Shown here: piece by piece, positions 7,413-44,498 of the stretch
How the letters are laid out: each line of letters begins with the position of its first letter
Position numbering within the stretch: the first letter of the stretch is position 1
From: Bdellovibrionales bacterium RIFCSPHIGHO2_01_FULL_40_29
GTDB taxonomy: Bacteria; Bdellovibrionota; Bdellovibrionia; Bdellovibrionales; Bdellovibrionaceae
NCBI GenBank assembly: GCA_001771815.1
Contig: MEPU01000003.1
Span: 1-64,000 of the forward strand
Direction of reading: 5' to 3'
Length of the DNA: 64,000 nucleotides
The notes under the pieces: model-generated
What the model saw: only the letters and a program-made list of their open reading frames with translations
Database searches by the model: none
What the model was told of the DNA's origin: nothing
Position numbers and translations under genes: made by a program

Positions 7413-7494
7413 AGAGTTCCTGCGTAAAACCTTTCCAAGAACACATTAAAAAGCATAAACTAAGCCAACGAAATAAGAGCCTAAAGGGGACCAT

Positions 7495-8016: not shown

Positions 8017-8018
8017 TT

Positions 8019-16570: not shown

Positions 16571-19500
16571 CGAATGGTAATCCGTCGCCAGTCTCGCTAC
16601 CAGTATCCCCGATATTCGGAGTCACCGTACCATTACCCAAAGCTCCGTTGGCCGCTCCACCCCAGCACTTCAGCCGCTTTGTGGTTGTTATCACGCAAGC
16701 ATGAAAATAACCTACTGAAATAGAACTGGCGACAACTCCCGTACCTAAGTTCACATTTGATAACGAAGACATCTCGTTGTTGTTATCTCCAATATTCGAC
16801 GTGCTACCTATAAGCAATTGACCTTGATTGCCTTGTCCCCAACAGCGAACGCCACCGGCCGCGCTCATTGCGCAACTCATTTGATTTCCACCAAAAATTT
16901 GAGTCGGAGTGTAGGAACTAAATGCAATAGCTGCCAAACCATCACCCATTTCACCTGTGTCATCACCCCATTGGTTTGTACCAACATCTAAACCCAGCTG
17001 TCCGCGAAAATTTCGTCCCCAGCATTTTGCAGTTCCATTATCTAAGACAGCACACGCGTGGCTATAGCCCGCTCCAATATTTGTTGCTGTTCGAGCTGTT
17101 CCTAAATTAATAGCTGCTAACCCTGTCATTTCGCCAGCCTCATCACCCGTTGTGACTGATGATTCAGTTCCCAATTGACCATAGCGATTTCCACCAAAAC
17201 ATTTCACAGTCGCATTGTCCAAAAGCGCGCATGTAAAATCCATTCCTCCGACTAACTTGGTGGCCGTTCGACCAACACCCAAATTCACGGCAGGTAAATT
17301 ATCGCCCATCTGCGAACCAGCTGTACCACGATTGACGGAATCTTCTAAACCCAACTGACCGGATGAGTTTCGTCCAAAACATTTCGTCACACCATTATCT
17401 AATATTGCACATGTGACATACCCAAACGCATAGATCTGAGTGGCCGTTCGACCAACTCCAAAATTCACTGCTGGCAAGTTATCACCCATTTCATTGGATC
17501 CATCACCCCGATTTGCAGTGCTGCCAATTCCCAATTGCCCGTAAGTATTCTGACCCCAGCATTTAACAGTGGCATTGTCCAACAATGCACACGTATGTGA
17601 AATGCCTGCAGCCAACTGCGTTGCCGTTCGCCCAGCTCCCAAATTCACAAAAGGCAATGCTCCACCAAGTTCTGTGGTCACATCAGCTAAATCTGTTGTT
17701 GATCCATGTCCTAATTGTCCAGCGGCTCCATCACCAAAACATTTCACAGAACCATCGTTGTAACGAACACAGTTGTGATAAGATCCAGATACAATTTCAA
17801 CGGGCTCAATATGCGTGATTGCTGCATCATCTATATTTGTAATATTATCTGTCACTCGAACAGTTCCCGCTCCAATCACCGATGCGGCAGTATATAAACC
17901 CGTGGATGCATTGATGGATCCTGTACCTGCAAAAACCGAATACGTATATGGTGCTGATCCTAAAATCGCCGAGAATGTCACCGTTGAAAAAATAGGTAAC
18001 TTCAAGCTCGATGGAGTGATAGACAATTCACTCACAATCGTCACTTCGGCTACAACAGTATTTCCAATGGTGTCAGTGACTTGTACAATATCTGTTCCAG
18101 CCACTGCCGGTGCCGTATAAAAACCTGTTGTGGAGTTAATAGATCCATCTCCACTTGAAATGGAAAATGTCAATGTACCGACACCACCCGAAGCTGTAAA
18201 TGTTGTGGTATCCAATGCGGCGATGGTTAAACTCAGGGGAGAAAGTGTTAATGGTTCATAAATTGTGACAGCTGTATCTGCTGTTGCTCCGACAGAATCC
18301 GTTGTTCTTAGTGTTGCGGAACCTATTGTTGCGGGTGCGGTGTAATCACCCGTCACCGTATCAATCACACCACCACCACTTACAATTGAGAACGTATAGG
18401 GACTGACTCCCCCTTCAGGACTTAAACTCAAATCAGAATTTGTAACCACATAGGCTGTTACAGGTGATACCGTTAATGGTCCCGTGACTGTTAACGATCC
18501 ATTGCTTGTATTCCCTAACGAGTCTGTCACGCGCACAGTGACAGATCCTGCTGATGCGGCCGTATAAAGTCCAGTTGACGAGTTAATTGATCCAGGACCA
18601 CTCAAAATAGAATACGAATACGGCGACACGCCACCCGTCGCTGAGTAACTTTGCGTTCCAGACGACGAAATCGTGGCCGTTAACGGAGAGATTAAAAGTG
18701 CTGCATTGATGGTGACCGTTGAATCTGAAATATTACCCATTCCATCCGTCACTCGCACGGTGGCCGAACCCGCTGTTGCGGGCGCTGTGTACGCTCCACT
18801 TGATGAATTTATTGCTCCTCCACCAGACACGATTGAAAATGTGTACGGCGAAACTCCGCCCGTAGCACTGAATGTATATATATTATTAACCGCTAATGAT
18901 TTCGTCGCTGGAACAATCGCCAGCGCCGCATTAATTGTGACAGATGCATCGGCAGTTGCTCCTAAATTATCAGTCACTCGAACCACTGCCGAACCAGCAG
19001 CAACGGGCGCCGTGTATAATCCTGTTGATGCATTGATAGATCCCCCACCACTCACCACGGAATACGAATACGGCACAGCTCCATTAGATCCTGCAAAAGT
19101 CACACTGTTATTCACTGCTAAAGTTGTACTCGCCGGAGAAATGCTCAGACCCGATGTTATTGTCACCGTCGAATTCGCTGTGTTACCAATACTATCCGTC
19201 ACACGAACTATCGTTGTATCCGGAGTTGCTGGCGCCGTGAATAATCCTGTTGATGCATTGATGGAACCCGTTCCGCTCACCAGTGAATACGAATAAGGAA
19301 CGACCCCACCATCAGCTGAAAAATTAAGAGTTCCATTGATACCCATCGTTTGTGACGTTGGCGAAATAGTCAGGGCCGCGTTCACGGTCACATTGGCATC
19401 TGCGGTGGCACCCAAAGAATCTGTGACTCGCACAACAGCCGACCCTGCACTGGCCGGTGCTGTGTACACACCCGTTGTGGCATTGACGCTGCCCGTTCCA

Positions 19501-20624
19501 CTCAGACGTGAAAATGTAAATGGACCAGTTCCACCAACGGCTGAAAATGTCGTTGAATTATTAACCGCCAATGTCGTTGATGTTGGCGAAATACTCAGTG
19601 CTGTTGTCACTGTGATTGCCGCATCAGCCGTATTTCCTATAGCATCTGTCACGCGGACCACCGCCGAGCCATTACTTCCCGGAGCCGTGTAAACACCGCT
19701 GCTTGAATTGATGGAACCTGTTCCTGATACCAAAGAATACGAATACGGCGAAACTCCACCGCTTTCAGAAAAAGCAATCGTTGTATTGATCAATGTTGTT
19801 TGCGAGGTCGGAGAAATTTGTAAAGCGGCATTGATGGTGATGCTGGCATCATCGGTTGCACCTAAACTATCAGTGACCCGAACAACTGCCGATCCCGCAC
19901 CCGCCGGAGCGGTATAGACCCCCGTTGTTGCGTTGATACTTCCGGTGCCACTCACCAGACTGAAAGTGTACGGACTTGAACCACCGCCCGCCGTGAATGT
20001 TGTCGAGTTATTCACAGCCAATTCATAAGTGGAAGGTGAAATCCCCAATACCGAAAAAATACTAACTGTGGCATTGGATGTATTTCCTAAAGAATCCGTC
20101 ACACGCACTGTTGCACTACCCGCTGAACCAGGTGCTGTGTACAATCCAGTTGTTGCATTGATGCTGCCAACGCCACTGACTTTTGAGTATGTCAGCGGTG
20201 GAACTCCACCTGTCGCAGAAAATGTATGTGTGGCGCCGATAGATAAACTTTGTGACGTCGGAGAAATCTGCAATGCAGGATTGATCGTCACCACTGAATC
20301 TGAGAAAGCTCCCAAACTATCGGTGACGCGAACAACTGCCGAACCCGACGCTCCAGGTGCCGTATAATTTCCAGATGTTGATAAAATCGAACCGCTGCCA
20401 CTAAAAATTGAAAATATGTACGGCGCCGTTCCGCCAGAAACAGTGAATGTTTGCAAATTGCTAACTGCTAAAGTTACAGCCACTGGTGAAATCGCAATCA
20501 CAGACTCAGAGGGCACAATAAGCGATGGCGACGGAGCATAACCATCCGTCGCTCGTTGACATGAAACGATTAGAAAACTAAACAACAGCGCGAATTTCAT
20601 TAACTTTTGAATCATATTATTCAT
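16560..20624 (-). CDS. Surface lipoprotein with 12 Ig-like repeats and a seven-bladed RCC1 propeller
   Basis: 1354 residues. The N-terminus is a lipoprotein signal with lipobox FLIVSC (Cys about 22). Residues about 42-945 are 12 consecutive units of about 75 residues, each with LxISP-, GGVxPYxFSxxSG-, GSINxxTGxYTAP- and VRVTDSLGN-type motifs, a bacterial Ig-like fold. Residues about 950-1354 are seven RCC1-type units with H-x-C-A, VKCWG and GQLG motifs; seven is the number needed to close a propeller. Each blade keeps two cysteines about 9-12 residues apart, as expected for disulfides outside the cytoplasm. Likely a stalk that displays a propeller on the cell surface; ligand unknown. Confidence 0.85.
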   Translation of the reverse strand: MNNMIQKLMKFALLFSFLIVSCQRATDGYAPSPSLIVPSESVIAISPVAVTLAVSNLQTFTVSGGTAPYIFSIFSGSGSILSTSGNYTAPGASGSAVVRVTDSLGAFSDSVVTINPALQISPTSQSLSIGATHTFSATGGVPPLTYSKVSGVGSINATTGLYTAPGSAGSATVRVTDSLGNTSNATVSIFSVLGISPSTYELAVNNSTTFTAGGGSSPYTFSLVSGTGSINATTGVYTAPAGAGSAVVRVTDSLGATDDASITINAALQISPTSQTTLINTTIAFSESGGVSPYSYSLVSGTGSINSSSGVYTAPGSNGSAVVRVTDAIGNTADAAITVTTALSISPTSTTLAVNNSTTFSAVGGTGPFTFSRLSGTGSVNATTGVYTAPASAGSAVVRVTDSLGATADANVTVNAALTISPTSQTMGINGTLNFSADGGVVPYSYSLVSGTGSINASTGLFTAPATPDTTIVRVTDSIGNTANSTVTITSGLSISPASTTLAVNNSVTFAGSNGAVPYSYSVVSGGGSINASTGLYTAPVAAGSAVVRVTDNLGATADASVTINAALAIVPATKSLAVNNIYTFSATGGVSPYTFSIVSGGGAINSSSGAYTAPATAGSATVRVTDGMGNISDSTVTINAALLISPLTATISSSGTQSYSATGGVSPYSYSILSGPGSINSSTGLYTAASAGSVTVRVTDSLGNTSNGSLTVTGPLTVSPVTAYVVTNSDLSLSPEGGVSPYTFSIVSGGGVIDTVTGDYTAPATIGSATLRTTDSVGATADTAVTIYEPLTLSPLSLTIAALDTTTFTASGGVGTLTFSISSGDGSINSTTGFYTAPAVAGTDIVQVTDTIGNTVVAEVTIVSELSITPSSLKLPIFSTVTFSAILGSAPYTYSVFAGTGSINASTGLYTAASVIGAGTVRVTDNITNIDDAAITHIEPVEIVSGSYHNCVRYNDGSVKCFGDGAAGQLGHGSTTDLADVTTELGGALPFVNLGAGRTATQLAAGISHTCALLDNATVKCWGQNTYGQLGIGSTANRGDGSNEMGDNLPAVNFGVGRTATQIYAFGYVTCAILDNGVTKCFGRNSSGQLGLEDSVNRGTAGSQMGDNLPAVNLGVGRTATKLVGGMDFTCALLDNATVKCFGGNRYGQLGTESSVTTGDEAGEMTGLAAINLGTARTATNIGAGYSHACAVLDNGTAKCWGRNFRGQLGLDVGTNQWGDDTGEMGDGLAAIAFSSYTPTQIFGGNQMSCAMSAAGGVRCWGQGNQGQLLIGSTSNIGDNNNEMSSLSNVNLGTGVVASSISVGYFHACVITTTKRLKCWGGAANGALGNGTVTPNIGDTGSETGDGLPFVNH

Positions 20625-30332: not shown

Positions 30333-31013
30333 GTGGCCGATACTAATCATATGAATATTGATCAGCTAGTAGAACATTTAAAAAAGCAAAACCTCACCGA
30401 GATCGAGCGAGCTACCGGAGTTCGGAGACAGTCTATCTATGCCTTATTCCAAAAGCACACCATGCAACTCGATACATTAAATAAATTATTACATTATCTC
30501 GACCTCGAAAACTCATTTGAAAGACACGTCTCAACCGAAGAAATCTATAAGAACATGCGTTACTATGGCGCTCCTATAAATAATAAAGCTGAAAAGTCTC
30601 TTTCACTTGAAGATACCTTGGCGTCCGCTATTGAAATAAGTCAGGCAGATGATTTTATCGCATCTACAATTCCTTATGTAATCGCCAACAATTATTCAAC
30701 GTTGAATCTGATTAAATTATTTCAGGAGTGTGTAAAAAAAGATAAAGTCCGTCTTATGGGGTTTTACTTAAATTTAGCTTGTGAGTTTGTTCCAAATAAT
30801 GAGGCTAAGACGTTTCTTGAGATGGTAAGCAACATGTATAAATTCAATAAACAGCATTGGGAGTCTGCAACATTAAAGATTCCTAGCCCGAGTATTCAGT
30901 CGCATTATATGCAGAACCCTATTGCATTGAAATGGAAAGTTTACTCTGCAGGTAAATTAGAGGATCATATTAAAAGGTGGCATAAATGGATTCAATTACG
31001 AAAGACGAAATAG
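30333..31013 (+). CDS. Helix-turn-helix protein, likely regulator/antitoxin-like partner
   Basis: 226 residues from GTG at 30333 (an ATG at 30351 is equally possible; neither has a clear ribosome-binding site). Residues about 10-50 (LVEHLKKQNLTEIERATGVRRQSIYALFQ) form a helix-turn-helix of the XRE kind; the rest is helical and unplaced. It overlaps the next gene by 28 bases, a layout typical of antitoxin-toxin pairs with a nucleotidyltransferase partner. Confidence 0.6.
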   Translation: MADTNHMNIDQLVEHLKKQNLTEIERATGVRRQSIYALFQKHTMQLDTLNKLLHYLDLENSFERHVSTEEIYKNMRYYGAPINNKAEKSLSLEDTLASAIEISQADDFIASTIPYVIANNYSTLNLIKLFQECVKKDKVRLMGFYLNLACEFVPNNEAKTFLEMVSNMYKFNKQHWESATLKIPSPSIQSHYMQNPIALKWKVYSAGKLEDHIKRWHKWIQLRKTK

Positions 31014-31249
31014 CCCTTGTCATAAAAGAAATGGACAAGCTCACAATATCAAATATTGATATTTTTTTTGTCGGCAGCATTGCCTCTATTATTGGGTACG
31101 ATACGAGCAAGCAGACAAACGATGCTGATACCTACAATTCTATAACCACCCATGCAGTTGAATTATGGAATAAAGCTTGTGAGATCGCCATTCGAAGACA
31201 AGGCTTAAAAAATATTTGCTTCAATAACTGTCATTTTTTTGGCATTTAA
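30986..31249 (+). pseudogene. Truncated nucleotidyltransferase-like gene (AbiEii/DUF6036 type suspected)
   Basis: 87 residues with a good AAGGTGG site. FFVGSIASIIGYDTSKQTNDADTYN resembles the strand-loop-DxD signature of minimal nucleotidyltransferase toxins (GS/GG, then T-x-D-x-D). Family members are about 180-300 residues, so most of the protein is missing. The open frame ends seven bases before the displaced Rhs segment, which suggests recombination cut it off. Function is inferred from a weak motif. Confidence 0.45.
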
Positions 31250-31406
31250 TTTCGGATGTGAAAGAACTTCGAACTGGTGCATTTTTAAATTCTACTCCTG
31301 CACCGCTGGCATCTTTTACTGATCGTAAAACTCCATACGCACTGTAATCCATTTTCTGAATAATATCACCAGACGCATTTGTAATCTCATTTACTGTGTT
31401 TAAATC
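31221..31406 (-). pseudogene. Displaced fragment of an Rhs core
   Basis: Minus-strand codons from 31406 read LNTVNEITNASGDIIQKMDY onward and match residues about 2522-2571 of the downstream-adjacent Rhs protein, then leave the homology after SSFT and end at a TGA at 31221 after 11 unrelated codons. There is no start codon. The aligned DNA (31256-31404 against 32607-32755) has only about five mismatches, all at the 31360-31404 end. Confidence 0.85.
31256..31404. repeat. Direct repeat, copy 1 (Rhs core segment)
   Basis: About 149 bases nearly identical to 32607-32755, same orientation, spaced 1351 bases apart. The first about 103 bases match perfectly. The barrel gene and the Rhs tip lie between the copies, so recombination between them would delete both. 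Confidence 0.95.
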
Positions 31407-31970
31407 TTACCATTTGTAGCCAACACCAAGGGCTAGAGTAGTAATATCAGAATTGAACTTATCAGAATAAAATTTTGTCATACTATATTCGGCCCTAATA
31501 AGATATCGCTCGTTAAATGTAAAATCATATCCAATTGCGATACCTAATCCTTTTAAACTTGTTTGTATCGTGTTACTCGAACTTATTGAATATTCATCAT
31601 AACCTAAGTTTGGATATATTATTGCTGCAAAATGCATGGTGCTTTCCAAAAATGGAAAATACTTTATTTTCGCCAAGAATGATTGTTTTTCATTTTTGAT
31701 TCCGAAATCTCTATTTTCGTATTTTGAAAACTGATAACCAATTGATACACCAAAATGCTCAGGTGCCGCCTTGTTTGATGAATATTCAAGAAAAATATCA
31801 TATATTTTTTCTGAATTAAATGATCCATTTGTTTGCGAATACAAACCTTCTCCTGTATTTAGCGAAGCATTTACCACTGAATTAACCACTATTGACTCAT
31901 ACTTAGAACCAGCAAGACATAGTTTTGAATAAAAAAGTATAATCCATAATAAATACAGTCTAGTATTCAT
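31407..31970 (-). CDS. Predicted outer-membrane beta-barrel protein coupled to the Rhs gene
   Basis: 187 residues from the ATG at 31970; an in-frame upstream start would bury the signal peptide. Signal peptide MNTRLYLLWIILFYSKLCLAG, alternating hydrophobic/polar strands with many Gly/Tyr, and the final LALGVGYKW ends in an aromatic residue as outer-membrane barrels do. The start overlaps the end of the Rhs gene by 11 bases and its AAAGG site lies in the last Rhs codons, so the two are translated together. It occupies the place where an Rhs immunity gene would be. Its role is unknown. Confidence 0.7.
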   Translation of the reverse strand: MNTRLYLLWIILFYSKLCLAGSKYESIVVNSVVNASLNTGEGLYSQTNGSFNSEKIYDIFLEYSSNKAAPEHFGVSIGYQFSKYENRDFGIKNEKQSFLAKIKYFPFLESTMHFAAIIYPNLGYDEYSISSSNTIQTSLKGLGIAIGYDFTFNERYLIRAEYSMTKFYSDKFNSDITTLALGVGYKW

Positions 31971-34900
31971 AGCCAAGCCTTTGTTGATAGTTTGAGTTAA
32001 CGTCTGGCGAATTGCGATCAGGAACTTTCCCATTACTATCTCCAGTAAAAATTCCGCCGATTGCAGGACCTAACGGTAAATCTAAATAAAAATAACGCCA
32101 AGAAAACAAACCTGCGCCACCAATAGCTGTAAATTCAAAGAACTTCTTCTTGTCAACATTACCATTTTCATCTTTTCCTGCATATTGATATGCTGCCCAA
32201 TTAAAGGCAGATGTTATTAAAAATGCTGAGGCCGCTTTTTCTAAACTATAGCTCCACGCTTCGCCACCAAGCCAACCTCCAAGACCATACAGTATACCAT
32301 TAAGCAAAATATTTTCTCCAAATTGCTCTAAGAAGTTACCTCCTTCATAATTATTTTGAACAACAGTCTGCGCTATAGAAATCACAACTAAATAGATAAG
32401 ATCATCCCAACCAAAAAATTTACCTGTTGGATCATTAAACATCACAGGATTATTCGCTGCATAAACATACTTACTCAAAAATGTACTCGGATTCGCGAGC
32501 TTCCCCGGATCAGGATCCTGCTGTAAAAATCTCCCCGTACTCGGATCATAATACCTCGCTCTATAGTAATACATACCCAGCTCAGACTCATACTCTCTTC
32601 CTGTATATGTGAAAGAACTTCGAACTGGTGCATTTTTAAATTCTACTCCTGCACCGCTGGCATCTTTTACTGATCGTAAAACTCCATACGCACTGTAATC
32701 CATTTTCTGAATAATATCTCCAGACACATTTGTAATCTCATTCACTGTATTTAAGTGATCTTTCAGATAATAATACTGACCTGCATTTTGAACCAACCCG
32801 TTACTCACTGCGAAGCTCGTGAACTTAGCTCCTAACACATCATCAGGTCTTAATGGTGAATGCGTATAACTAGCCGTTAAATTATTATCTGCGTCCAGTT
32901 CTGCAATAATATTGTCGCCACCGTAATAATATTTCTGCGTCTTTGATTTTTGGGGATTTTCATAATCTGTCAGCTGGCGCGCTATTCTTCGACCTGCGGG
33001 ATCGTATTTAAATTCGATGACCTTAAGAACATCTCCACCCAGAGGTGCTGAAGTTATTGTTGATTTTTTGAGTTGATTCAAAGCTGAATACTCAAACGTG
33101 TAACTGATACCGTTTTGTTTATTCGATTTGTACGTGATATTCCCGTTTAAATCGTACACATATGTGAATTTTCCATCATCTTGAATACGCTGGCCCGTAC
33201 TATCAAATGTCGACGTTGTTCCATTATACGTTAATCTATTCCCAAGTGCATCGTAACTGAAAGATTCGTTATCCACCGGATTTTCAGATTTATTCGCAGC
33301 AACAAGTTGCCCATTGGAATCGTAACTATAACTCAAACTTGCTGCTGGACTTCGTTTTTGCGTGATATAATTTCTTAAATCGTAGCTGTATTCATGAAAA
33401 CTAATTTCAGCTCCACCTTTTTGATGAGATATTTTTGATAAACTCGATCCCGTATCAAAAATATAATTCGTGACTGAACCCGGTCGCGACACTTGTGCCA
33501 ACCGACGAGCATCATCATAACCAAAACTATAACTGCCTGTCGTCGAACTCCCCATCGAAATCAACTGATCCGTACTTGGACTATATTCATACGAAATATT
33601 TTGAAAATTACTTTGCAAAGATACAAGTTGATCCAATTTGTTGTAATTAAAATACATCTCATGAAGCGGATAGTTCAGCAAATCACTGGATACATTTTCA
33701 TAGACAATTCTCTGCTTCGCATCACGCTGATATTGAATAACCGCTGTTCGATTGGCAATTTGCACAACCTCATTTTTGATATTATATTGATATTGGATTT
33801 GATCATCTGCAGTCACAACTTGAGTCACCTTATTCACTTCGTTATAGAAGTATTGCTTCAGTTGATTTGCTGGATCTTTTTCGCTGACAAGATTACCATT
33901 TCCGTCATACTCCATTTGATAAACTTGACCCAATGGATCGGTCTTTCTAATCAATTGGCCTTTTAAATTATATTCAAAACTTGTCACTTTACTATTTGGA
34001 TCTTTAATCTGTATCAGCTCGCCAGACGGCGAATAGCTGTAGGATGTGATTTCGCCATTTGGTGATGTCACCTTTGTCAGACGATTCATCTGGTCGTATT
34101 CATAATTTGTCGTTGATTCCGCACTTCCATTAATATTTGAAGTTGCTGTCAGAACATTGCCTGCCAAATCATAGGTGTACGTCGAAAACTTATTGTTAAA
34201 ATCAGTTTGTTTTATAAGCTGACCTTTTGAGTTATATTCGTATGTGAACTGATTCTTTAACTGACCTGATTGATTGAAGCGGGATTTGCTAATTATAAGT
34301 CCCAATGAATTGTATTCATATGTTGCATACGTGCCATCTGGGGTAATTTCTTTGATCAATTGTTTTCTGCTGTTATAAATTTTTTTGCTGGCTTTACCAT
34401 GCGGATCAGTTTGCGAAATAATCTGTCCCGCACTGTTGTACTGTGCTTCAGTTGTAATATCTAAAGTTACATTTTTTACTTTAATGACATCACCATAAAT
34501 CGGATCATAGGTGTTTTGTGTGACAGAACCATCCACATCAGTTATTTCAATAGGTCGCCCGTCCAAATCTCTTTTAATTGTTGTTGTTCGCCCTCTAGCA
34601 TCAACTAGTGTTGAAATATAGCCCTGAAAATCTTTGGCTAAAACTGTTTTGTTGCCATTTGGATCAGTAATCGATTCATTGATATCGTTAGCGCCAACAC
34701 CATATTGCTTTGGCGTTGTGTCCGCAGAATTAAAATTCTGTTGGTTTGCACTACCGCTATCGTTAATTGTTAGCGTTGTATTATCAGATTGAATGATATT
34801 AGCAATCCGACCATAGACATTATACTGGTACTCTCGTCTTGAATTTTTTTGATCAATTTCAGCAATCATTAAACCATCAGAGTTGTATTCAAATTGTTTT

Positions 34901-37900
34901 GCCGTTCCATCTGGAAAATACACGGATTTCAGATTTCCAGAAAAATCGTAGTTGAATTCCGTAGCCCGATTAGCCGGGTCAATAATGCGCGAAAGTTTAT
35001 CGCCAGAATAAATATAAACTATAGACTCATTCATAGGTGTTTTTATTTCAGTCAGTCGATTTCTCTCGTCGTAGATATAACGAACAACGCGGTCAGCATT
35101 ATCAACAGCTGACGTTTGATAACCTAAACTATTAAAATAAACTCGACTACCATCACGATACGTTCTGACCCAGGTCCCATCTTCAATTCTTTGCAGCATA
35201 GAATTGTCTTTTGTTGTCGGCAAAAAGGCCAACACACCACCTGTGGTATTTTGAAAAATAACACGACGAACTCTGTTATTTCCACTATCTGCGATCAATA
35301 GATTTTTATTTTCATCAAGACCCAAATGCGTTGGAGCATTTAAATTTGCATCAAGTGCGGAACCGCCGTCACCAGCAAAACCTGCACGGCCACTACCGGC
35401 AACAGTCATTGCATGATTTGTATTTAAATTGATTCGAACAACGCGATTATTTCCAGTATCTGCTACATAAAGATACTGATTTTGCTCATCCAACACCAGA
35501 CCATAGGGTTTATTCAATAAAATTTCTCGGGCTTTTGATTCATTTGCAAAAACACCATTAACAGGATCTCCTGCCACAATCGAAATATTACCATTGGTAT
35601 CAACTTTTCTAATGTAACCACTATCGCTAGAAATATAAAGATTCCCGATAGAATCAAAGACAAGTCCCTTCGGGTGATTGATTGAGGCCTCGGTTGCAAG
35701 TCCACCATTACCCACATCACTGGCTTGACCATTTCCAGCAATAACTCCATTTTCACCCGTGGCCACATTCAGCCAACGAACTTTATGAAATCCATAATCA
35801 GCAATAACAACAACATCAGGTCTTGGACTTGCTACAACGCTCATTGGGGTATTTAAAGTTTGCTTACCATTAATAACAACATCATCCGTGCTAAATGGGA
35901 TTTCACTTGAATTTGATTCCACTAAACCACACGAATTTGAACCTGTATTATTCGAATGCACTCGAGATATTCCGCCGCAAATTAAACCAGGCACACTGCT
36001 GCAATATTGATTCATCGCTGTTTGTTGAGTTTCATTCGTCGTTTGATAGTTATTTATAAATACTGTCGGAGACACTTGAGATCCCAAGACCCGAGTGGCA
36101 ACACCTCCGTTCATATCAAAAACAGAATGCCTATTGGCATCAACACCAATAATACGTCCATTTAAATTAAGCATGCTCACAGGTTTAGAATTTTGTGTAT
36201 ATGAAGACGTGTGTCGTGCACATGACGAGTAGTAATTGGGCGCATTACAATACGTAACTGTTTCCCATCTGACACACGAATTACCACCTGGCCAAGACCA
36301 ACGCTCTGCACACACTCGCTCTTGCCAACAATTCTGCGTCTGATAATTATAAAAATCATAACCTTTTAAAAGACCATTCAATGCATAATTGCTTCCAATG
36401 ATATTCTTACTAACACCAGCAGTTCCGTTGTAATTTAAATTTACTATTTCCAAATTATTCTGACTTGAAGCCGCTGCGACATTCGGCCAAGCATTTAGTG
36501 CCACTCCACTACTGACATCAACTCCAAGATTTGAGCCATCAATCACTGTTTGTATTGTATTATTAATCCCGTAGGTCGTAATTCCACCATCGGCTTCTTC
36601 AAGCATAATTTTATCACTGCTCGGATTAACAACCTTTTGATACCCAGCAAGTTTCCAACCCGTTCCGGCTTCAGAATTTTTATAGTTTTGTACATAAATC
36701 GAATCCGTTAGATCTTGTCCGAATACTTTTTCTGGCGATAACGATGGTTCAAATGGCTCAGGATCTGTCGATTGAGCGCTTGTCGTATCCGTCCAATACG
36801 TTGTTGTGTAAGTGCCCATGATAAGTTCTTTAAAATAGATATCATAATGGGCCTGATACGGATACACCCCCGTATCAAAGTATTCATTTGTATTATTGTC
36901 TTTAAGTAAATCCACACCAAAACTTATTGCTGCCATGTGTGGCAAATCTTTAAACGTTTCTTTATTCGTTCTTAAATTTCCAGTCGTCAGAGTCGCTTCA
37001 ATTTTTTCAGGCTGAATCTGAGACGTCACATTTGTATATTTGGTCTCATACTGAACATTTGCATAAAATGTTTTTGGATCAGCACTGCATCCAGAAGGTA
37101 AATTATCATAATCGATTGGTCCACCACCGCCTTCCCCGCCACCACTGGTGTCAATATAGAATGGCCATGAGCAATTCACAAATTTGACTTCGTATGGTTC
37201 AAGACTTGCGCCCACCTGATTTGGCAACGTGACATCCACTTTAGTATGTGCAAAATCAAATAAATTTGTAACTAAAGCCGATGGCTTTGCCCAAGAGCTT
37301 TTATAAATTAATTTCGGCGCAAACGATTGACCTAAAGTTTTAAATGAAGGCAATTCAATCTGAGCACTCAAGGCTCCATTAAAAGTATCAGCACCCGGCT
37401 TATCTTGGGAACCGATTTGTCTTATGTTTGGTCCCGCAATAGTAGCATAAGCCAATGAAAAATGCCTGATCCCTTGATTGGGCTTTGTCACAACACTTTG
37501 ACCATCGGAAGAAACTGTGGCTGCGCCGCCAATTTCCCAACGTCCATTTTTTGAATTCATCAGCATGATCACAAGCTCAGTTTTAGGATAAAAATTATTC
37601 ACATTGGGAAGACTTAATTCAACAGGCTCACTAAATGTTGTTCCTGATGGTTCAAGCGCAACAACAGTTTTAGGCTTAGCCCATTTCGGCACACCGACTG
37701 TTGCATGATCAGCTGGAACAGTTTGTAAACTGATTAAGTTTTCACTTTCACCATTCGGAAATTGTGTCGCACCAGAAGGAATACTCAATGTCACTCCGGG
37801 AGCATGGGTATCGGTCACAACACCACCGGCTTGGGCCACAATACTTGTTGCACTGCCATCTAAATAAATTGGCGCGAGATAAATTGGAGTTTGTAAAATA

Positions 37901-40320
37901 TTACTTTGTCTGACACCAATCGTGATACTCATCGAAGTTTTAGAAAATTTTCTGGGTGTCGCTTGAGCTGATAAAATCACTTGGCTACCATCAATAACCA
38001 GTTGCTGATCACCCAAGACTTTTTTACCTGGAAAACTTGATTTTAAAAATGAAAATACACCATTGCTATCCGTATATGTAGAAAGAGGAGTACCCATAAT
38101 TGAAACTTGCGCATGAACTAATGGGAAATCATCAGTATCACGGACAGTTCCGGAAAGAATAACATCATTTTCTGCATCCAATTCATAATTATAACTGACA
38201 GTTTCATTTTTTCGATGATCATAAACACTAACACTATAAGAGCTTGAAGGAGGCATCGAAATCATGAAGCTCCCTTTTGCATCCGCGACTATTGTTTCTG
38301 AATTAAAAAAACCACCTGAAACTTTCACTGTATAATTTGGTCTCGTTGCGCCAACAGCACCCTTAACAATGACTTTATTATTGGGCTCATCCACATATAA
38401 ACCTATTAAAGATTGATTCAGTGGTCTAGATATCGCATAAACTGTGATTGCTTTTTCTCCAACATTGCCAGCTTTATCAATAGCCTGAGCTGTTAGCGTA
38501 GTATTCCCCTCAAGAACTGTTGAAAAACTTGTAGTAAGATTTTGAGTTTCTCCTAAAACTGGAATATCCGATCCATTGAGCTTTGCTGAAACCACTGGTT
38601 CATTAGCAGTTAAGCTCACTTGAAAATAAAATCCATCGACAGAGTCATCCTGAATCGGCGAAACGAACGTCAAAACTGGTGGCGTTGTGTCGCGCATGAT
38701 AGTTTTAATATCGCTCATGGCAACATTTCCGGCCATATCCTGACTGATTATTTTAACTAAGTTTATGCCTTCATTTGTGAGATTTATGCTTCCTGTAAAA
38801 TAGATACTGCTTGTTGTCAGTTGCAATTCATCATTCACATATATTTTTGTTATTGTTGGACTTAAATCCTCAATACTGACAGGAACTTGATAGGTCATTT
38901 GATTTGTAAGGACTTCACTTGGAATACCATGAGAAATTTTTGGTGCAGTCCTATCAATTCTAAAATTTATGACATGAGTGACAGCTTCATTTAAAGCTAA
39001 ATCTTTGACATTGGACTCAAGACTATAAAGCCCCTCGGCTAATGGATTTATATCGCCCGAAAAAGCGTACTCAGCACCCTCACCAATTTTTAACTTTGAA
39101 AAATTCAAAGTCATATCTTGATTGACGACCGCACCACCATCAGTCACTGAACCCGTTAATCTTGTATGAAATGTTTCCGCATCAATGCGTCCAAAAAGAT
39201 CCGCAGATCTTAAATTCACATAATCCAAGGCTTGCACAGACAATGTTCCAGAATCTGAATTCGGCGAAGACTCAGTAAGCCATACAGGCTTTACCGTGTC
39301 GCTACTGACAGGTATTTTTTGCGTGATCCAACCAACTCGATTTTTGAATTTATTTTTATCAGCTGTATAAAGTGCAATCGAAAATTCATTGCTATTATTC
39401 GGAAGCAACCTGTCCGTTGTATAGGTGTACGAAATACTCTCGCCACCTGATAGTTCTTGCGCCTGACTTGTATATAGCTTTTGACCATTAAATATGAACT
39501 GAGCCACTTTTAAATCATGCTCATCCTTGTGATCGTCATCATCTCTACCTTGGCGCAAATTCGTCACACTCGCATAAATAGAAGTGCTCATCCCCTCAAT
39601 TGCTGTCCCAATTTCAGACTTGATTAAAAAACGATACTTATTCATGACTGTCGATATCTGACTTGAATTGGACGTCAAATTATCCACTTGCTGAGCAAAA
39701 CGATTTTCAGCGATAAGATCTTCATCAGAGTTTAGCTTTAAGCTGATTTTCTGACTCAGACTGTCTAATAATTGAATTTGTTTCTCAATATAAGAAACAG
39801 CTCCTGCTGACCAATTTTCTTTTTTAGATTTATTTTTTAGTTCGTTTAATGCCTGAATCCGGCGCTCCAGTTTGGCACGAGTTTTTGAGAATTTCTCAAG
39901 CAATGCTCGCTCTTGTCGATTGTTATAAAGCTTGATTGAAAACTGATTCAGATCAAGAGCATTGATACTTTCAACTTTGTAGTCGAATCTGATTTCAGAA
40001 CTATTGGTGCTCGTTAAAATCAGTTTGTCTGTAACATCAATGGCTTCGCTCGGAAAAGAGGCCGTGATATCAATTCCTTCTTTCTGAAGCTCTTGAAGTA
40101 AAGTGAATTTATCTTTTTTGTATTTATGATTCTCGTCTTTGTTATAAACTTTAATCACACCAGAATAGGTAACAGACTCACCATTATGAACATTTTTTTT
40201 ATCTGGCGTAACTGAAACGATCACACCTCGGTCTCGGGCATAACCAAAATAATTCCCGTCAGCAAACGAGACATTTAAAAAACTGAACATCATTACAAAT
40301 GAAATTAAGCATGACTTCAT
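31960..40320 (-). CDS. Giant Rhs/YD-repeat protein with Ig-like and NHL domains (teneurin-like layout)
   Basis: 2786 residues. Signal peptide 1-20; a helical N-terminal part; Ig-like domains (about 455-640); a carboxypeptidase-regulatory-like beta domain (about 710-760); a cysteine-rich insert (about 1320-1370); NHL propeller units (about 1485-1695, GLVFDSIGNLYISS, VYVADTGNNRVVRI-like); more than 15 YD repeats (about 1735-2560); the Rhs core YYRARYYDPSTGRFLQQDP; and the cleavage-type motif P-x4-DPTG in PVMFNDPTG. A 153-residue tip with two hydrophobic helices follows and matches no toxin I know. Exported. Immediately downstream of a small lipoprotein gene, and coupled to a barrel gene. Confidence 0.88.
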   Translation of the reverse strand: MKSCLISFVMMFSFLNVSFADGNYFGYARDRGVIVSVTPDKKNVHNGESVTYSGVIKVYNKDENHKYKKDKFTLLQELQKEGIDITASFPSEAIDVTDKLILTSTNSSEIRFDYKVESINALDLNQFSIKLYNNRQERALLEKFSKTRAKLERRIQALNELKNKSKKENWSAGAVSYIEKQIQLLDSLSQKISLKLNSDEDLIAENRFAQQVDNLTSNSSQISTVMNKYRFLIKSEIGTAIEGMSTSIYASVTNLRQGRDDDDHKDEHDLKVAQFIFNGQKLYTSQAQELSGGESISYTYTTDRLLPNNSNEFSIALYTADKNKFKNRVGWITQKIPVSSDTVKPVWLTESSPNSDSGTLSVQALDYVNLRSADLFGRIDAETFHTRLTGSVTDGGAVVNQDMTLNFSKLKIGEGAEYAFSGDINPLAEGLYSLESNVKDLALNEAVTHVINFRIDRTAPKISHGIPSEVLTNQMTYQVPVSIEDLSPTITKIYVNDELQLTTSSIYFTGSINLTNEGINLVKIISQDMAGNVAMSDIKTIMRDTTPPVLTFVSPIQDDSVDGFYFQVSLTANEPVVSAKLNGSDIPVLGETQNLTTSFSTVLEGNTTLTAQAIDKAGNVGEKAITVYAISRPLNQSLIGLYVDEPNNKVIVKGAVGATRPNYTVKVSGGFFNSETIVADAKGSFMISMPPSSSYSVSVYDHRKNETVSYNYELDAENDVILSGTVRDTDDFPLVHAQVSIMGTPLSTYTDSNGVFSFLKSSFPGKKVLGDQQLVIDGSQVILSAQATPRKFSKTSMSITIGVRQSNILQTPIYLAPIYLDGSATSIVAQAGGVVTDTHAPGVTLSIPSGATQFPNGESENLISLQTVPADHATVGVPKWAKPKTVVALEPSGTTFSEPVELSLPNVNNFYPKTELVIMLMNSKNGRWEIGGAATVSSDGQSVVTKPNQGIRHFSLAYATIAGPNIRQIGSQDKPGADTFNGALSAQIELPSFKTLGQSFAPKLIYKSSWAKPSALVTNLFDFAHTKVDVTLPNQVGASLEPYEVKFVNCSWPFYIDTSGGGEGGGGPIDYDNLPSGCSADPKTFYANVQYETKYTNVTSQIQPEKIEATLTTGNLRTNKETFKDLPHMAAISFGVDLLKDNNTNEYFDTGVYPYQAHYDIYFKELIMGTYTTTYWTDTTSAQSTDPEPFEPSLSPEKVFGQDLTDSIYVQNYKNSEAGTGWKLAGYQKVVNPSSDKIMLEEADGGITTYGINNTIQTVIDGSNLGVDVSSGVALNAWPNVAAASSQNNLEIVNLNYNGTAGVSKNIIGSNYALNGLLKGYDFYNYQTQNCWQERVCAERWSWPGGNSCVRWETVTYCNAPNYYSSCARHTSSYTQNSKPVSMLNLNGRIIGVDANRHSVFDMNGGVATRVLGSQVSPTVFINNYQTTNETQQTAMNQYCSSVPGLICGGISRVHSNNTGSNSCGLVESNSSEIPFSTDDVVINGKQTLNTPMSVVASPRPDVVVIADYGFHKVRWLNVATGENGVIAGNGQASDVGNGGLATEASINHPKGLVFDSIGNLYISSDSGYIRKVDTNGNISIVAGDPVNGVFANESKAREILLNKPYGLVLDEQNQYLYVADTGNNRVVRINLNTNHAMTVAGSGRAGFAGDGGSALDANLNAPTHLGLDENKNLLIADSGNNRVRRVIFQNTTGGVLAFLPTTKDNSMLQRIEDGTWVRTYRDGSRVYFNSLGYQTSAVDNADRVVRYIYDERNRLTEIKTPMNESIVYIYSGDKLSRIIDPANRATEFNYDFSGNLKSVYFPDGTAKQFEYNSDGLMIAEIDQKNSRREYQYNVYGRIANIIQSDNTTLTINDSGSANQQNFNSADTTPKQYGVGANDINESITDPNGNKTVLAKDFQGYISTLVDARGRTTTIKRDLDGRPIEITDVDGSVTQNTYDPIYGDVIKVKNVTLDITTEAQYNSAGQIISQTDPHGKASKKIYNSRKQLIKEITPDGTYATYEYNSLGLIISKSRFNQSGQLKNQFTYEYNSKGQLIKQTDFNNKFSTYTYDLAGNVLTATSNINGSAESTTNYEYDQMNRLTKVTSPNGEITSYSYSPSGELIQIKDPNSKVTSFEYNLKGQLIRKTDPLGQVYQMEYDGNGNLVSEKDPANQLKQYFYNEVNKVTQVVTADDQIQYQYNIKNEVVQIANRTAVIQYQRDAKQRIVYENVSSDLLNYPLHEMYFNYNKLDQLVSLQSNFQNISYEYSPSTDQLISMGSSTTGSYSFGYDDARRLAQVSRPGSVTNYIFDTGSSLSKISHQKGGAEISFHEYSYDLRNYITQKRSPAASLSYSYDSNGQLVAANKSENPVDNESFSYDALGNRLTYNGTTSTFDSTGQRIQDDGKFTYVYDLNGNITYKSNKQNGISYTFEYSALNQLKKSTITSAPLGGDVLKVIEFKYDPAGRRIARQLTDYENPQKSKTQKYYYGGDNIIAELDADNNLTASYTHSPLRPDDVLGAKFTSFAVSNGLVQNAGQYYYLKDHLNTVNEITNVSGDIIQKMDYSAYGVLRSVKDASGAGVEFKNAPVRSSFTYTGREYESELGMYYYRARYYDPSTGRFLQQDPDPGKLANPSTFLSKYVYAANNPVMFNDPTGKFFGWDDLIYLVVISIAQTVVQNNYEGGNFLEQFGENILLNGILYGLGGWLGGEAWSYSLEKAASAFLITSAFNWAAYQYAGKDENGNVDKKKFFEFTAIGGAGLFSWRYFYLDLPLGPAIGGIFTGDSNGKVPDRNSPDVNSNYQQRLGYEY
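32607..32755. repeat. Direct repeat, copy 2 (inside the intact Rhs gene)
   Basis: Partner of the repeat at 31256-31404. It lies just before the end of the Rhs core, which is where rhs genes commonly exchange their variable C-terminal tips. Confidence 0.95.
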
Positions 40321-40819: not shown

Positions 40820-42124
40820 TTAATATTTTTTATTATAAGACTTTGAAAACGAATTCACGCTTGTATCAATACCCAAATTTTCAAACAAAGTTCCAACCAA
40901 TTGCTGAATACCAAAACGAATACGCAAAATAGAAATTTGCTGTGATAATGTATTGCTCGAGGCACTTCGAAATGCATTCAATCTTGGAATTCCCACCTTG
41001 ATCATATCCACAGATTCACCGGCTTCTACAGCGGCCAAAACACGATCTAAATTCTCGCGAGCCGTTTTTAAATTTGCTAAATATGACGTGTATAAATCCA
41101 TTTGATTCTGCAGCAACGGGTACGTGGATTCAATTTTAAATTTCTTTTCGTCAATAGTGCCCTCTAAATCACTTTGTGCCGCCGCAACTGATTTTTCACT
41201 GGCTCGTTGACTATGGCGATTTGAAACATCAAAAGTCATCTGAGCCTGAATGCCCACGGATGCTGATGTGCCATAACCACGTCGAGACGATCCTCCGCGA
41301 TCTACCGATGCACTGGCTGTTACCTGCAGACCATGGCGGGCTTTCTCCGCTTCACTGTACTCACGATTTGAATTCAAATTGTATTCGGCCAACTTTATAT
41401 CCGGATTTTTATCCAAGGCAATTCGAAAGGCCTCTTCCGCATTCTCGGGAATACCCAGGGATTGGATTGCTTGACCGATCGTCTGCAATTGTTCAAATGG
41501 GGGCGCTGGAATTGTTGAATAATACTTAAAACCTTTTTCAGATTCACGCAAACTGAACTTCAATGTCAGCAAGGTATTTTGTAACTCACTGATACTTTCT
41601 TGAATAGTCACGGCTTCTTCAGCCGTGGCGACTTTCAAATACAACTTTAATGTGGTTTCCGCATAAGTTAAATAGCGAATGCGCTCGTTCAGCTCGACAA
41701 TGGAAACATACGACATTAAAACTTCTGCAGCAATACTGGCTCGGGTGTTGGACATCATCGGACTGGTTGAATTGTACTGCGCAATGGATGCTTTCAAATC
41801 ACTTTCTCGTGCAGCAACGGCATGTCGATGAGCTCCTCCATCAAAAAGACTAACAGATGTGCTGATTCCAACCCGACGCCCCTGCGAACTTGCCTCACCC
41901 GCAGAGTAATTATATGACTGACCTGCACCAATTGATACGAAGGGCATTGAGCTCAATCGAGCGGCTTCCAATCGATCTTCCATAGCGGATATCCGGGCCT
42001 CGTTGGCCACCATTTTTGGATTATTCTGCAGGGACACCTTTATCGCTTCTAAAAGCGTCATCGAAAATACCGACGAAGAAAACAACATCAAACCTAATAG
42101 AGTACTCACAAATGAAAATTTCAT
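40820..42124 (-). CDS. TolC-family outer membrane efflux protein
   Basis: 434 residues, typical family length. Signal peptide MKFSFVSTLLGLMLFSSSVFS, then two similar halves, each a long coiled-coil helix pair with beta strands (LLEAIKVSLQNNPKMVANEARI and AFRIALDKNPDIKLAEYNL start the halves). VGISTSVSLFDGGAHRHAV and VGIQAQMTFDVSNRHSQRA are the membrane-strand regions. Trimeric outer-membrane export channel. No inner-membrane pump or adaptor lies next to it, so the substrate is open. Confidence 0.85.
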   Translation of the reverse strand: MKFSFVSTLLGLMLFSSSVFSMTLLEAIKVSLQNNPKMVANEARISAMEDRLEAARLSSMPFVSIGAGQSYNYSAGEASSQGRRVGISTSVSLFDGGAHRHAVAARESDLKASIAQYNSTSPMMSNTRASIAAEVLMSYVSIVELNERIRYLTYAETTLKLYLKVATAEEAVTIQESISELQNTLLTLKFSLRESEKGFKYYSTIPAPPFEQLQTIGQAIQSLGIPENAEEAFRIALDKNPDIKLAEYNLNSNREYSEAEKARHGLQVTASASVDRGGSSRRGYGTSASVGIQAQMTFDVSNRHSQRASEKSVAAAQSDLEGTIDEKKFKIESTYPLLQNQMDLYTSYLANLKTARENLDRVLAAVEAGESVDMIKVGIPRLNAFRSASSNTLSQQISILRIRFGIQQLVGTLFENLGIDTSVNSFSKSYNKKY

Positions 42125-42255: not shown

Positions 42256-42885
42256 CTAATAACTATTAAAAACCATTTCCAGATTGGTATCTAACATTTG
42301 GCTTATCGGCGTCACGATGGGCTCTTCAGGATTCAGTACTTTTCCTAAATCTGTCAGCCGTCTTTTGATAAGCTCCTGAACATGGGGCCCATCCAAACGC
42401 AAATCTTTCATTTTATTGACGATTCCGATCTCAGCACCCGTGACCTCTTTCATCACTTTGTAGGTCAGCTCACTGCAATAGATGCGATCATTATTAAACT
42501 CAAAATAGATATCATATGTTTTTCCAAAATATTTGGCCAAGGCCTGGTACAATCCCATTCGCATCTCTGCATTGCGATAAGCTTTAAAACGAAAAATTTT
42601 GAATTCTTGATTTTTTCCTCGAGCGATAAATTGTTTCAGGGGCGTGGCTTCAACACCGTTCCGTGCTTCAGCCACAAACCAAGAATTATCTTTCTTAACA
42701 ATGATACCCACATGAGACCACTCGGATGCCGTAGCTTCTCGAATGGCATAAGATTGAGCCGACTGACTCTTGTGAAAAATTAAATCCCCATCTTGTAAAA
42801 TCTGACTCATGTCGATTTGGTTGATATTCCCGAATCCCGAAATCGCAGAGAACGATAACAAAAGAAAAAAGAGGATATTCTTCAT
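42256..42885 (-). CDS. Permuted papain-like (YiiX/NlpC-P60-type) periplasmic protein
   Basis: 209 residues from the ATG at 42885, which leaves a clean signal peptide (MKNILFFLLLSFSAISGFG); an in-frame start at 42936 would add 17 polar residues. Family marks are LQDGDLIFHKS, the histidine in EWSHVGIIV, FVAEARNGVEATPL and the cysteine in IYCSELTYKVM, in permuted order (His before Cys). Members are hydrolases or amidases, often acting on lipids or peptidoglycan. It follows another member of the same fold. Confidence 0.75.
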   Translation of the reverse strand: MKNILFFLLLSFSAISGFGNINQIDMSQILQDGDLIFHKSQSAQSYAIREATASEWSHVGIIVKKDNSWFVAEARNGVEATPLKQFIARGKNQEFKIFRFKAYRNAEMRMGLYQALAKYFGKTYDIYFEFNNDRIYCSELTYKVMKEVTGAEIGIVNKMKDLRLDGPHVQELIKRRLTDLGKVLNPEEPIVTPISQMLDTNLEMVFNSY

Positions 42886-42934
42886 ATCCTCTACTCTAAA
42901 AAGTTTATTTTTAACGAGCAACAACTGTTGCGTC

Positions 42935-42965
42935 ATTCTAGACTAAATTTAATTTAATCTAGAAT
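42935..42965. repeat. 31-base near-perfect palindrome between two papain-like genes
   Basis: 14 of 15 base pairs match, with one C-A mismatch, around a single central base; arms begin ATTCTAGA and end TCTAGAAT. It begins ten bases after the upstream gene's stop (minus strand). No T-run follows, so it may stabilise mRNA or partly terminate. Confidence 0.8.
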
Positions 42966-42974
42966 TCATTAATT

Positions 42975-44498
42975 TTACTTCGTGCTTTTCGCAGCTTTCA
43001 ATAATGTTTGGTACGAATCAACACCCTTTGCCGGCATAAAAAACAATGTCGATATATACTCCATTGATTTTTGTTTCATGTTCTGACCCAATAATTGATT
43101 GGGAACAATGGCATGCATCATAAATGCTGTCGGAGAATAATTTAAACGATTGGCTGCATTGAACTGGCCACGAATGGCGTTTCGCATTCCAATTTGTTGT
43201 TCAAATCCCGCAACATTAGGAACTGCCGTCAAGGCATAGTAACCCAACACATGTTGATAAAACTCTGGATCAGCATGCAATAACTGCTCTTCAACATCAC
43301 GATGCCCCTGAGAAATGCTGGCCTTATTTTTTCCTGCTGTTCCAATAATAGTCCATTCAAGCAAACGCTGACGAACACTTTTTCCAGAAGCATGTGGACG
43401 AGGATCCGCTTTCATAATATCCGCTAACAAAATCGGTCCATCACTCATACCAAACTGATCATCCCCTTGCTCGCGCTGACCTTCATACAAAGATCCAAAA
43501 ACCTTCATCGGTTCAAAAATCTTTTTCACACACGATGGTGTACTATCACCATTAAAACGTTTTGCATCTGATTCAGGATTACAATCCTTTAATGACAACA
43601 CGGCCCAAGCAAATTCCGAGCAATACATGGTCAAGCCATCCGGTACACTTTTCGCCAAGGCCAAACGACCCAAGTCGGCAACAAATCGCATCTCATCATC
43701 ACCTGATTTATTCACATCATACGTTGGATTCATGTAATCCATATTGAATGTGATTCGATCTGCATACTTTTCATTGGCATCAGGTTTTGATTTCACTTTA
43801 TAAATTTCTTTAGAGCGTGATCGGAATAATTCCAACCATTTGCCAACATTCTGACGTTGTTCATCCGTCATGTTTTTATCACGCACAATATGAAACATTA
43901 CTCCCTCTTCAGCATAGTGCGCTGAAGTGAATTTTGACATTCGATTATCACCCAGCATTTCTGCATTCAGGGGCATATCCACATTGATGACATAATTTTT
44001 TCCATCTTTATCTTTTTTAACTAAAGCCATTCCCGCATGAGTCACACCCAATTGAACATGAATATAAGGTATTGTTCCGGCCAACGTTGGCCGAGCTGAT
44101 AAAATAATATCTCCGGTTTTAACTAAACCTGAATCCGCCAATTTATTACTGACGCTTTCACGCGAATCCTTCGGGGCGGCAACAACCAAACGCAAACCCA
44201 AATTACTTTGACCTGATTTATCTTGTTCTTGAATGATTTCATTGTAGTTCGTTAACACCAGCGGCATTTTCTGAGTGGATGATCTCACCGAAGTGATTTC
44301 GGTCTCAATATTTCCGTAAGCCATTGTCGGCACCGTAAAAAAGTAAGGAATATTCAATGTTTCCTTAAAGCCCGTATCGATTTGAGCTTGATAGGGGTTT
44401 TTCCCTATCGTCGATACCACGGCATCTTGTCCTGCAAATAATGTTTGCGCTAACAACGCTGTACTTAAAAACAGGCTAATGGCTTTATTGAAGTTCAT
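42975..44498 (-). CDS. Large secreted protein with permuted papain-like domain
   Basis: 507 residues, signal peptide MNFNKAISLFLSTALLAQTLFA. The middle has KTGDIILSARP, GVTHAGMALVKK and MYCSEFAWAVLSLKDC, the same D-G/T-D-I, H and C landmarks as the neighbouring 209-residue protein, so it has the YiiX/NlpC-P60 permuted fold (about 125-300) with an N-terminal extension and a C-terminal domain of about 180 residues that I cannot place. GGAG lies nine bases before the ATG. Likely periplasmic hydrolase. Confidence 0.68.
   Translation of the reverse strand: MNFNKAISLFLSTALLAQTLFAGQDAVVSTIGKNPYQAQIDTGFKETLNIPYFFTVPTMAYGNIETEITSVRSSTQKMPLVLTNYNEIIQEQDKSGQSNLGLRLVVAAPKDSRESVSNKLADSGLVKTGDIILSARPTLAGTIPYIHVQLGVTHAGMALVKKDKDGKNYVINVDMPLNAEMLGDNRMSKFTSAHYAEEGVMFHIVRDKNMTDEQRQNVGKWLELFRSRSKEIYKVKSKPDANEKYADRITFNMDYMNPTYDVNKSGDDEMRFVADLGRLALAKSVPDGLTMYCSEFAWAVLSLKDCNPESDAKRFNGDSTPSCVKKIFEPMKVFGSLYEGQREQGDDQFGMSDGPILLADIMKADPRPHASGKSVRQRLLEWTIIGTAGKNKASISQGHRDVEEQLLHADPEFYQHVLGYYALTAVPNVAGFEQQIGMRNAIRGQFNAANRLNYSPTAFMMHAIVPNQLLGQNMKQKSMEYISTLFFMPAKGVDSYQTLLKAAKSTK

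What the first reader, a model, noticed from the sequence alone, without database searches (positions are those of the whole stretch)
31960..40320. Bacterial protein with a teneurin-like domain order
Ig-like region, NHL propeller, YD-repeat shell, Rhs core with P-x4-DPTG and a 153-residue hydrophobic tip occur in the order seen in animal teneurins and large polymorphic toxins. The tip matches no toxin I know, and carries two probable membrane helices, which would suit pore formation. An exported version in a presumed predator is of special interest.
Basis: partly seen in the sequence, partly recalled or inferred. Interest (0 to 1): 0.7.

Follow-up and report, generated by a model that had tools for sequence, protein, structure and literature searches.

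The report
Teneurin-like shell toxin with barrel partner
A bacterium of the Bdellovibrio group encodes a giant exported shell protein, related to the bacterial ancestors of our nerve-cell teneurins, that appears to carry a swappable envelope-attacking tip and to travel with an unusual outer-membrane protein that probably protects the producer.

Summary
One intact 2786-aa exported protein (31960-40320, minus strand) has the order Ig-like, TTR-like, ZU5-like, NHL, YD-shell, Rhs core with P-x4-DPTG, tip. Its NHL-to-core half matches a solved bacterial teneurin-like protein (E 1.6e-83). That architecture is not new: a 2026 paper defines bacterial teneurin-like proteins (TLPs) as shell toxins with polymorphic tips and downstream immunity genes. 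This lineage is a variant: the paper does not list Bdellovibrionota, and profile searches find no FN-plug match here.

First, tip plus next gene form an exchanged cassette: the unit core end-tip-gene is bracketed by 148-bp direct repeats (97% identical). Relatives share the backbone up to DPxG but have different tips, so the tip is not a structural cap. Second, the partner gene overlaps the Rhs stop codon by 11 nt and looks like a secreted outer-membrane beta-barrel. A same-genus relative has a phospholipase-A2-like tip followed by a barrel, then an orphan tip tail followed by a second, related barrel.

I infer a self-cleaving polymorphic toxin with a helical, envelope-acting tip and an outer-membrane immunity protein. 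Pore formation is plausible but unproven: one clear membrane segment, poor structure model.

The parts
31960..40320 (-). TLP-like Rhs/YD-repeat gene, 2786 aa
   Evidence: Intact ORF; domain and PDB matches
40261..40320 (-). Signal-peptide-like N-terminus (residues 1-20), no lipobox
   Evidence: Hydropathy maximum 1.58 at residues 4-22; sequence read directly
38401..39288 (-). Ig-like region (about residues 345-640)
   Evidence: Weak Big_13, Ig_J and OmpL47 hits
38044..38157 (-). TTR-like CarboxypepD_reg domain (residues 722-759)
   Evidence: Pfam E 2.7e-8
37591..37848 (-). ZU5-like domain (residues 825-910), in the position of the TIP domain of TLPs
   Evidence: Pfam E 0.0017, sub-threshold; weak ankyrin ZU5 match by profile
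36301..37368 (-). Region in the FN-plug position (about residues 985-1340), no detectable plug homology
35206..36288 (-). Teneurin-type NHL propeller (about residues 1345-1705)
   Evidence: TEN_NHL; profile match to 9pt5 E 2.4e-69
32701..35133 (-). YD-repeat shell (about residues 1730-2540)
   Evidence: Ten RHS_repeat hits; PDB match to 9ifo 1526-2633
32422..32697 (-). Rhs-associated core with R2589, D2602, D2630 and P-x4-DPTG
   Evidence: TIGR03696 E 3.5e-20; motif positions
31963..32421 (-). Tip (residues 2634-2786), mainly helical by prediction
31407..31970 (-). Partner gene, 187 aa, signal peptide, outer-membrane-barrel-like; candidate immunity gene; start overlaps the Rhs stop by 11 nt
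   Evidence: OMP_b-brl E 2.8e-6, 28.0 of 28.7 bits; C-terminus LALGVGYKW; sequence
32607..32754 (-). Direct repeat, copy A (inside the Rhs core)
   Evidence: 144/148 identical to copy B, E 2e-69
31256..31403 (-). Direct repeat, copy B: displaced remnant of the old Rhs core, starts 3 nt behind the partner gene's stop

Best explanation
This is a T6SS-independent, Sec-exported polymorphic toxin on a teneurin-like carrier. The N-terminal Ig/TTR/ZU5-like domains display it; the NHL/YD-shell encapsulates the C-terminal tip, which the core cuts off behind DPTG with its aspartate pair (D2602, D2630). The freed ~152-aa helical tip acts on a neighbouring cell's envelope, probably by inserting into a membrane. 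The next, translationally coupled gene makes a secreted outer-membrane beta-barrel that protects the producer. Tip and barrel gene come and go together as one cassette by recombination in the Rhs core. Shown by computation: domain order, motif, tip polymorphism, cassette scar, gene overlap. Inferred: cleavage, encapsulation, target, membrane action, immunity, delivery.
For: Match to the solved TLP shell over NHL to core; DPTG with TLP-like Arg-Asp spacing of 13 (PMC13018210); tips differ among relatives exactly from DPxG on; core end + tip + partner bracketed by 148-bp direct repeats, 144/148, as the C-terminal displacement model predicts (PMC2935791); partner start overlaps the Rhs stop; in G001 two successive tip-end/barrel pairs; related tips in G020 and G086 are followed by lipoproteins, and all 16 clade cassettes have an envelope-type next gene; clade tips are hydrophobic compared with other Rhs tips of the class (p 2e-5); G001's tip is PLA2-like, that is membrane-directed; no T6SS sheath gene in the genome; BiTLP precedent of a permeabilising tip (PMC13018210).
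Against: The window's own tip is only mildly hydrophobic (61st percentile of class tips) with one clear membrane segment; its model is poor (pLDDT 55). The barrel assignment rests on a sub-threshold Pfam hit plus the C-terminal pattern; its single-sequence model failed. The window's barrel is not detectably related to G001's barrels, and relatives of the tip have lipoproteins instead. Exported partners are common for Rhs genes of the class in general (46 of 60).
Confidence: 0.5

Rival explanations
1. A polymorphic toxin as above, but the hydrophobic first third of the tip only serves retention in the shell or translocation, and the diverged C-terminal ~90 residues are an unrecognised enzyme or binding toxin acting in the periplasm.
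For: Tip similarity to G020 covers only residues 1-54, and to G086 9-83, while the rest diverges; only one clear membrane segment; a sibling tip is an enzyme-like PLA2.
Against: G020 and G086b tips are related over nearly their whole length; no catalytic motif or family hit in the C-terminal part.
Confidence: 0.25
2. The barrel-like gene is not an immunity gene but an outer-membrane anchor, receptor or helper for the carrier that merely rides in the cassette; immunity is provided otherwise or is not needed.
For: An outer-membrane barrel is an unusual immunity protein, with no precedent in the papers searched; the barrels of the window and of G001 are not detectably related.
Against: A helper of the shared carrier should be conserved with the carrier, but the gene in this place changes with the tip (lipoprotein, multi-pass protein, barrel); cassette scar and overlap; pairs in G001.
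Confidence: 0.18
3. A non-toxic adhesion or signalling protein, like the pilus-linked YD-repeat protein Bd0109 or animal teneurins.
For: Bd0109 is a YD-repeat protein tied to pilus and growth signalling in Bdellovibrio (PMC3818213); long Ig-like N-terminus.
Against: Autocleavage motif, polymorphic tip, cassette scar and partner gene would be unexplained.
Confidence: 0.07

Closest known systems
Bacterial teneurin-like proteins (BiTLP of Bacillus inaquosorum, PDB 9ifo/9pt5; PMC13018210)
   Same: Ig-type N-terminus, TTR-like domain, NHL, YD-shell, DPxG cleavage motif, short variable tip with a membrane segment, coupled downstream gene
   Different: No FN-plug or TIP match; ZU5-like domain in the TIP position; Bdellovibrionota, not among the paper's six phyla; SPI-type signal rather than the lipoprotein signal reported for Gram-negative TLPs; unrelated tip; barrel-like partner
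Rhs polymorphic toxins with tip displacement (PMC2935791, PMC3482391)
   Same: Conserved core, exchangeable tip + partner, displaced core remnant downstream
   Different: NHL and exported N-terminus instead of PAAR/VgrG parts; no T6SS sheath gene in the genome
Tse5 pore-forming Rhs toxin (PMC10684867)
   Same: Shell with a ~150-aa tip released by aspartyl autocleavage; membrane as proposed target
   Different: T6SS-delivered; no detectable tip similarity by PDB search
Tox-WTIP predicted pore-forming tips (PMC3482391)
   Same: Two-membrane-helix tips on RHS carriers
   Different: Wx[ST]IP motif absent from this tip (sequence)
Animal teneurins
   Same: TEN_NHL followed by YD-shell
   Different: Cleavable internal tip in place of an external Tox-GHH domain; no EGF or transmembrane part

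Membership tests
Bacterial teneurin-like protein (definition of PMC13018210) | NHL domain of teneurin type | tested here: met
   TEN_NHL E 2.1e-12; profile against 9pt5 E 2.4e-69
Bacterial teneurin-like protein (definition of PMC13018210) | YD-shell directly after the NHL | tested here: met
   Single alignment 1526-2633 to 9ifo, E 1.6e-83
Bacterial teneurin-like protein (definition of PMC13018210) | FN-plug domain before the NHL | tested here: inconclusive
   No match by sequence, by 7-sequence profiles or by Pfam models; the authors' HMM could not be run and no structure model was made
Bacterial teneurin-like protein (definition of PMC13018210) | TIP domain (96% of TLPs) | tested here: inconclusive
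   Profile of residues 640-960 does not match the BiTLP chains; ZU5-like instead
Bacterial teneurin-like protein (definition of PMC13018210) | Variable C-terminal domain plus adjacent immunity gene | tested here: met
   Variable tip; adjacent coupled gene; that it confers immunity is not testable here
Rhs polymorphic toxin | Rhs-associated core ending in DPxG, then an exchangeable tip | tested here: met
Rhs polymorphic toxin | Displaced tip/core remnants downstream | tested here: met
   148-bp repeat, 144/148
T6SS Rhs effector | T6SS in the genome | tested here: not met
   No VipA sheath gene; no PAAR domain in the protein
Pore-forming toxin | At least two membrane-spanning helices in the tip | tested here: inconclusive
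   One segment at 1.47, others at or below 0.91; low-confidence all-helical model
Pore-forming toxin | Membrane permeabilisation | not testable with these tools
   Needs an assay
Outer-membrane beta-barrel (partner gene) | Signal peptide, C-terminal aromatic beta-signal, barrel domain match | tested here: inconclusive
   Signal-peptide-like start and C-terminus met by inspection; OMP_b-brl 28.0 of 28.7 bits; single-sequence model unusable; no PDB match

The most novel reading that the evidence does not exclude
Outer-membrane beta-barrels serve as cognate immunity proteins of shell-encapsulated envelope toxins (a helical tip here, a phospholipase-A2-like tip in G001), in a Bdellovibrionota sister lineage of teneurin-like proteins with its own plug. 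Protection would then act at the outer membrane, before or as the toxin crosses it.
Probability: 0.4. Interest if true: 0.68.

Novelty: new variant of a known kind. Interest (0 to 1): 0.5.

Why it matters
It extends teneurin-like toxins to a group that includes known bacterial predators, shows tip-plus-partner cassette exchange on such a carrier at the level of one event, and proposes a kind of immunity protein (outer-membrane barrel) for which I found no precedent in the papers searched. It bears on what the bacterial ancestors of teneurins did, and on how bacteria without a T6SS deliver and survive shell toxins.

Tried and rejected
Tip against Pfam, PHROGs and PDB (profile): nothing beyond chance. 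FN-plug and TIP by profile: nothing. AlphaFold of the barrel from a single sequence: unusable. AlphaFold of the tip with five sequences: low confidence, so no fold search was run. Idea that envelope-type partners are special to this clade: weakened by the control set, 46 of 60 elsewhere against 16 of 16 here, Fisher p 0.03. Idea that the barrels of G001 and of the window are one family: not supported. Structural-cap idea: rejected. Barrel in other genomes of the phylum: none found in 369. Cassette of foreign base composition: tip GC3 0.26 lies within the backbone's range, so no support. Conserved synteny with the TolC-like neighbour in the genus: not seen. tblastn did not pick up the orphan tip tail in G001; a direct alignment against shuffles did. 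My first motif pattern for tip ends missed several loci and was replaced by a blastp-anchored one.

Full report
OBSERVATION. The window holds one intact ORF of 2786 aa at 31960-40320 on the minus strand. It opens with a signal-peptide-like stretch without lipobox. Pfam and NCBIfam give weak Ig-like hits (415-633), CarboxypepD_reg 722-758 (a TTR-like fold), a sub-threshold ZU5 825-910, TEN_NHL 1531-1642, ten RHS repeats and the Rhs-associated core 2542-2633. Against the PDB the best match by far is the teneurin-like protein of Bacillus inaquosorum, aligned from the NHL to the end of the shell (1526-2633, E 1.6e-83).

WHAT IS KNOWN. Raoelijaona et al. 2026 (PMC13018210) define bacterial TLPs by FN-plug, NHL and YD-shell. 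They show that BiTLP is cut behind DPxG and within the plug, that it encloses a hydrophobic ~92-aa tip which makes E. coli permeable when exported, and that TLP genes are nearly always followed by a gene that, in the tested case, is an immunity gene. Their six phyla do not include Bdellovibrionota, and the word Bdellovibrio does not occur in the paper. Contigs of related loci used here are titled as uncultured Bdellovibrionales, Bdellovibrionaceae and Bdellovibrio sp., so the window comes from that neighbourhood. Whether this organism is a predator was not tested.

IS IT A TLP? NHL and shell: yes. In the position of TIP there is a ZU5-like domain within the best-conserved part examined (60% mean column identity over residues 640-960), whose profile does not match the BiTLP chains. 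The ~355 residues in the FN-plug position match no plug by sequence, profile or Pfam model. I call the protein a TLP-like variant or sister lineage. The catalytic spacing at the cleavage site fits: R2589-D2602 is 13 residues, as R2103-D2116 in BiTLP; D2602-D2630 is 28 against 24 (and the paper). Cleavage itself is inferred.

THE TIP IS POLYMORPHIC. In whole-genome searches of relatives the backbone matches stop at about residue 2636. In a full-length alignment with seven relatives, identity is mostly 30-70% along the backbone from about residue 500 up to 2633, and near background in the tip. Sixteen cassettes of this core clade carry many different tips. Four tips are related: the window's, G020's (E 4e-11 over residues 1-54) and two of G086. 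In the same genus, G001 has the same backbone (43%) and a tip whose loop and HD-motif region aligns with phospholipase A2; the similarity is weak, but 12 of 13 PDB matches up to E 10 are phospholipases A2 or their homologues.

CASSETTE SCAR. A 148-bp piece of the Rhs core (32754-32607) recurs at 31403-31256, 144/148 identical, E 2e-69. The second copy starts 3 nt behind the stop codon of the next gene. The unit from copy to copy is exactly core end + tip + next gene, 1351 bp. This is what the C-terminal displacement model (PMC2935791) leaves behind: an incoming core-tip-partner unit, with the remnant of the old core downstream. The remnant breaks off next to a truncated nucleotidyltransferase-like gene on the other strand.

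THE PARTNER. The next gene (31970-31407) overlaps the Rhs stop by 11 nt. It encodes 187 aa with a signal peptide, an OMP_b-brl hit just under threshold (E 2.8e-6, 28.0 against 28.7 bits) and a C-terminus LALGVGYKW of outer-membrane type (aromatic last residue, alternating hydrophobics; established knowledge of the beta-signal). In G001 the PLA2-like tip is followed by a 214-aa protein of the same type (ending LLYLGLGISF). Then come an orphan piece homologous to the end of that tip (local score 78 against 22.9 +/- 4.6 in 2000 shuffles) and a second barrel-like gene related to the first (E 8e-5). Tip ends and barrels thus travel in pairs. In the rest of the clade the same place holds lipoproteins or multi-pass membrane proteins. 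A partner's site tends to mirror the toxin's site (noted for L,D-peptidase toxins in PMC3482391), so I infer an envelope target. I found no earlier outer-membrane barrel immunity protein in the searches made; absence there is weak evidence.

MEMBRANE ACTION. The clade's other tips are hydrophobic (median GRAVY 0.445, n = 14) compared with 71 other Rhs tips of the class (median -0.30; p 2e-5). The window's own tip is not extreme: -0.14 overall, one segment at 1.47. A five-sequence AlphaFold model is mostly helix but of low confidence (pLDDT 55). I rate membrane insertion more likely than not, pore formation less certain.

DELIVERY. No T6SS sheath gene was found in this 99.99% complete genome. 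A TolC-type gene lies 500 bp upstream on the same strand (40820-42124); close relatives of that gene are absent from most genomes of the genus, and I draw no conclusion from it.

CONTROL ON THE PARTNER ARGUMENT. Other Rhs genes of the class also mostly have envelope-type next genes (46 of 60), so the exported-partner rule belongs to the exported Rhs proteins of this class as much as to this clade. The outer-membrane C-terminal pattern was seen in none of those 60.

VERDICT. A variant of a class published in 2026. Its new elements are the lineage, the clean cassette scar and the barrel-like partner.

Noticed in passing
30333-31246 (+): HTH gene followed by a truncated DUF6036-like nucleotidyltransferase (weak hit), cut off where the displaced Rhs remnant ends; looks like a broken toxin-antitoxin pair.
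   Followed up: partly
L037 (G001:C40) 10305-12370: PLA2-like tip, barrel-like gene, orphan PLA2-tip tail, second related barrel-like gene in a row.
   Followed up: yes
L051 (G086:C100) 1-9000: Array of orphan cassettes: two core pieces with tips, each followed by lipoprotein genes, plus further lone lipoprotein and membrane-protein genes resembling partners elsewhere.
   Followed up: partly
L040 (G049:C87) 8394-9221 (-): Tip of the same core clade containing HEVGH, a possible metal-binding protease motif, with an overlapping lipoprotein gene.
   Followed up: no
L044 (G008:C10) 2434-2829 (-): Degenerate piece of the same YD-shell (72% identical, stop codons inside), a lost copy of the gene in a same-genus genome.
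   Followed up: partly
16560-20624 (-): 1354-aa exported protein with an RCC1-type propeller and a BiPBP_C domain.
   Followed up: no
42256-44498 (-): YiiX-like C92 amidase gene next to a 507-aa exported protein without Pfam hit.
   Followed up: no
L112 (G000:C8, contig end) and L111 (G000:C11, contig start): Further Rhs pieces of the window's own genome at contig ends, one with a multi-pass partner gene; the window's gene is not the genome's only Rhs gene.
   Followed up: no
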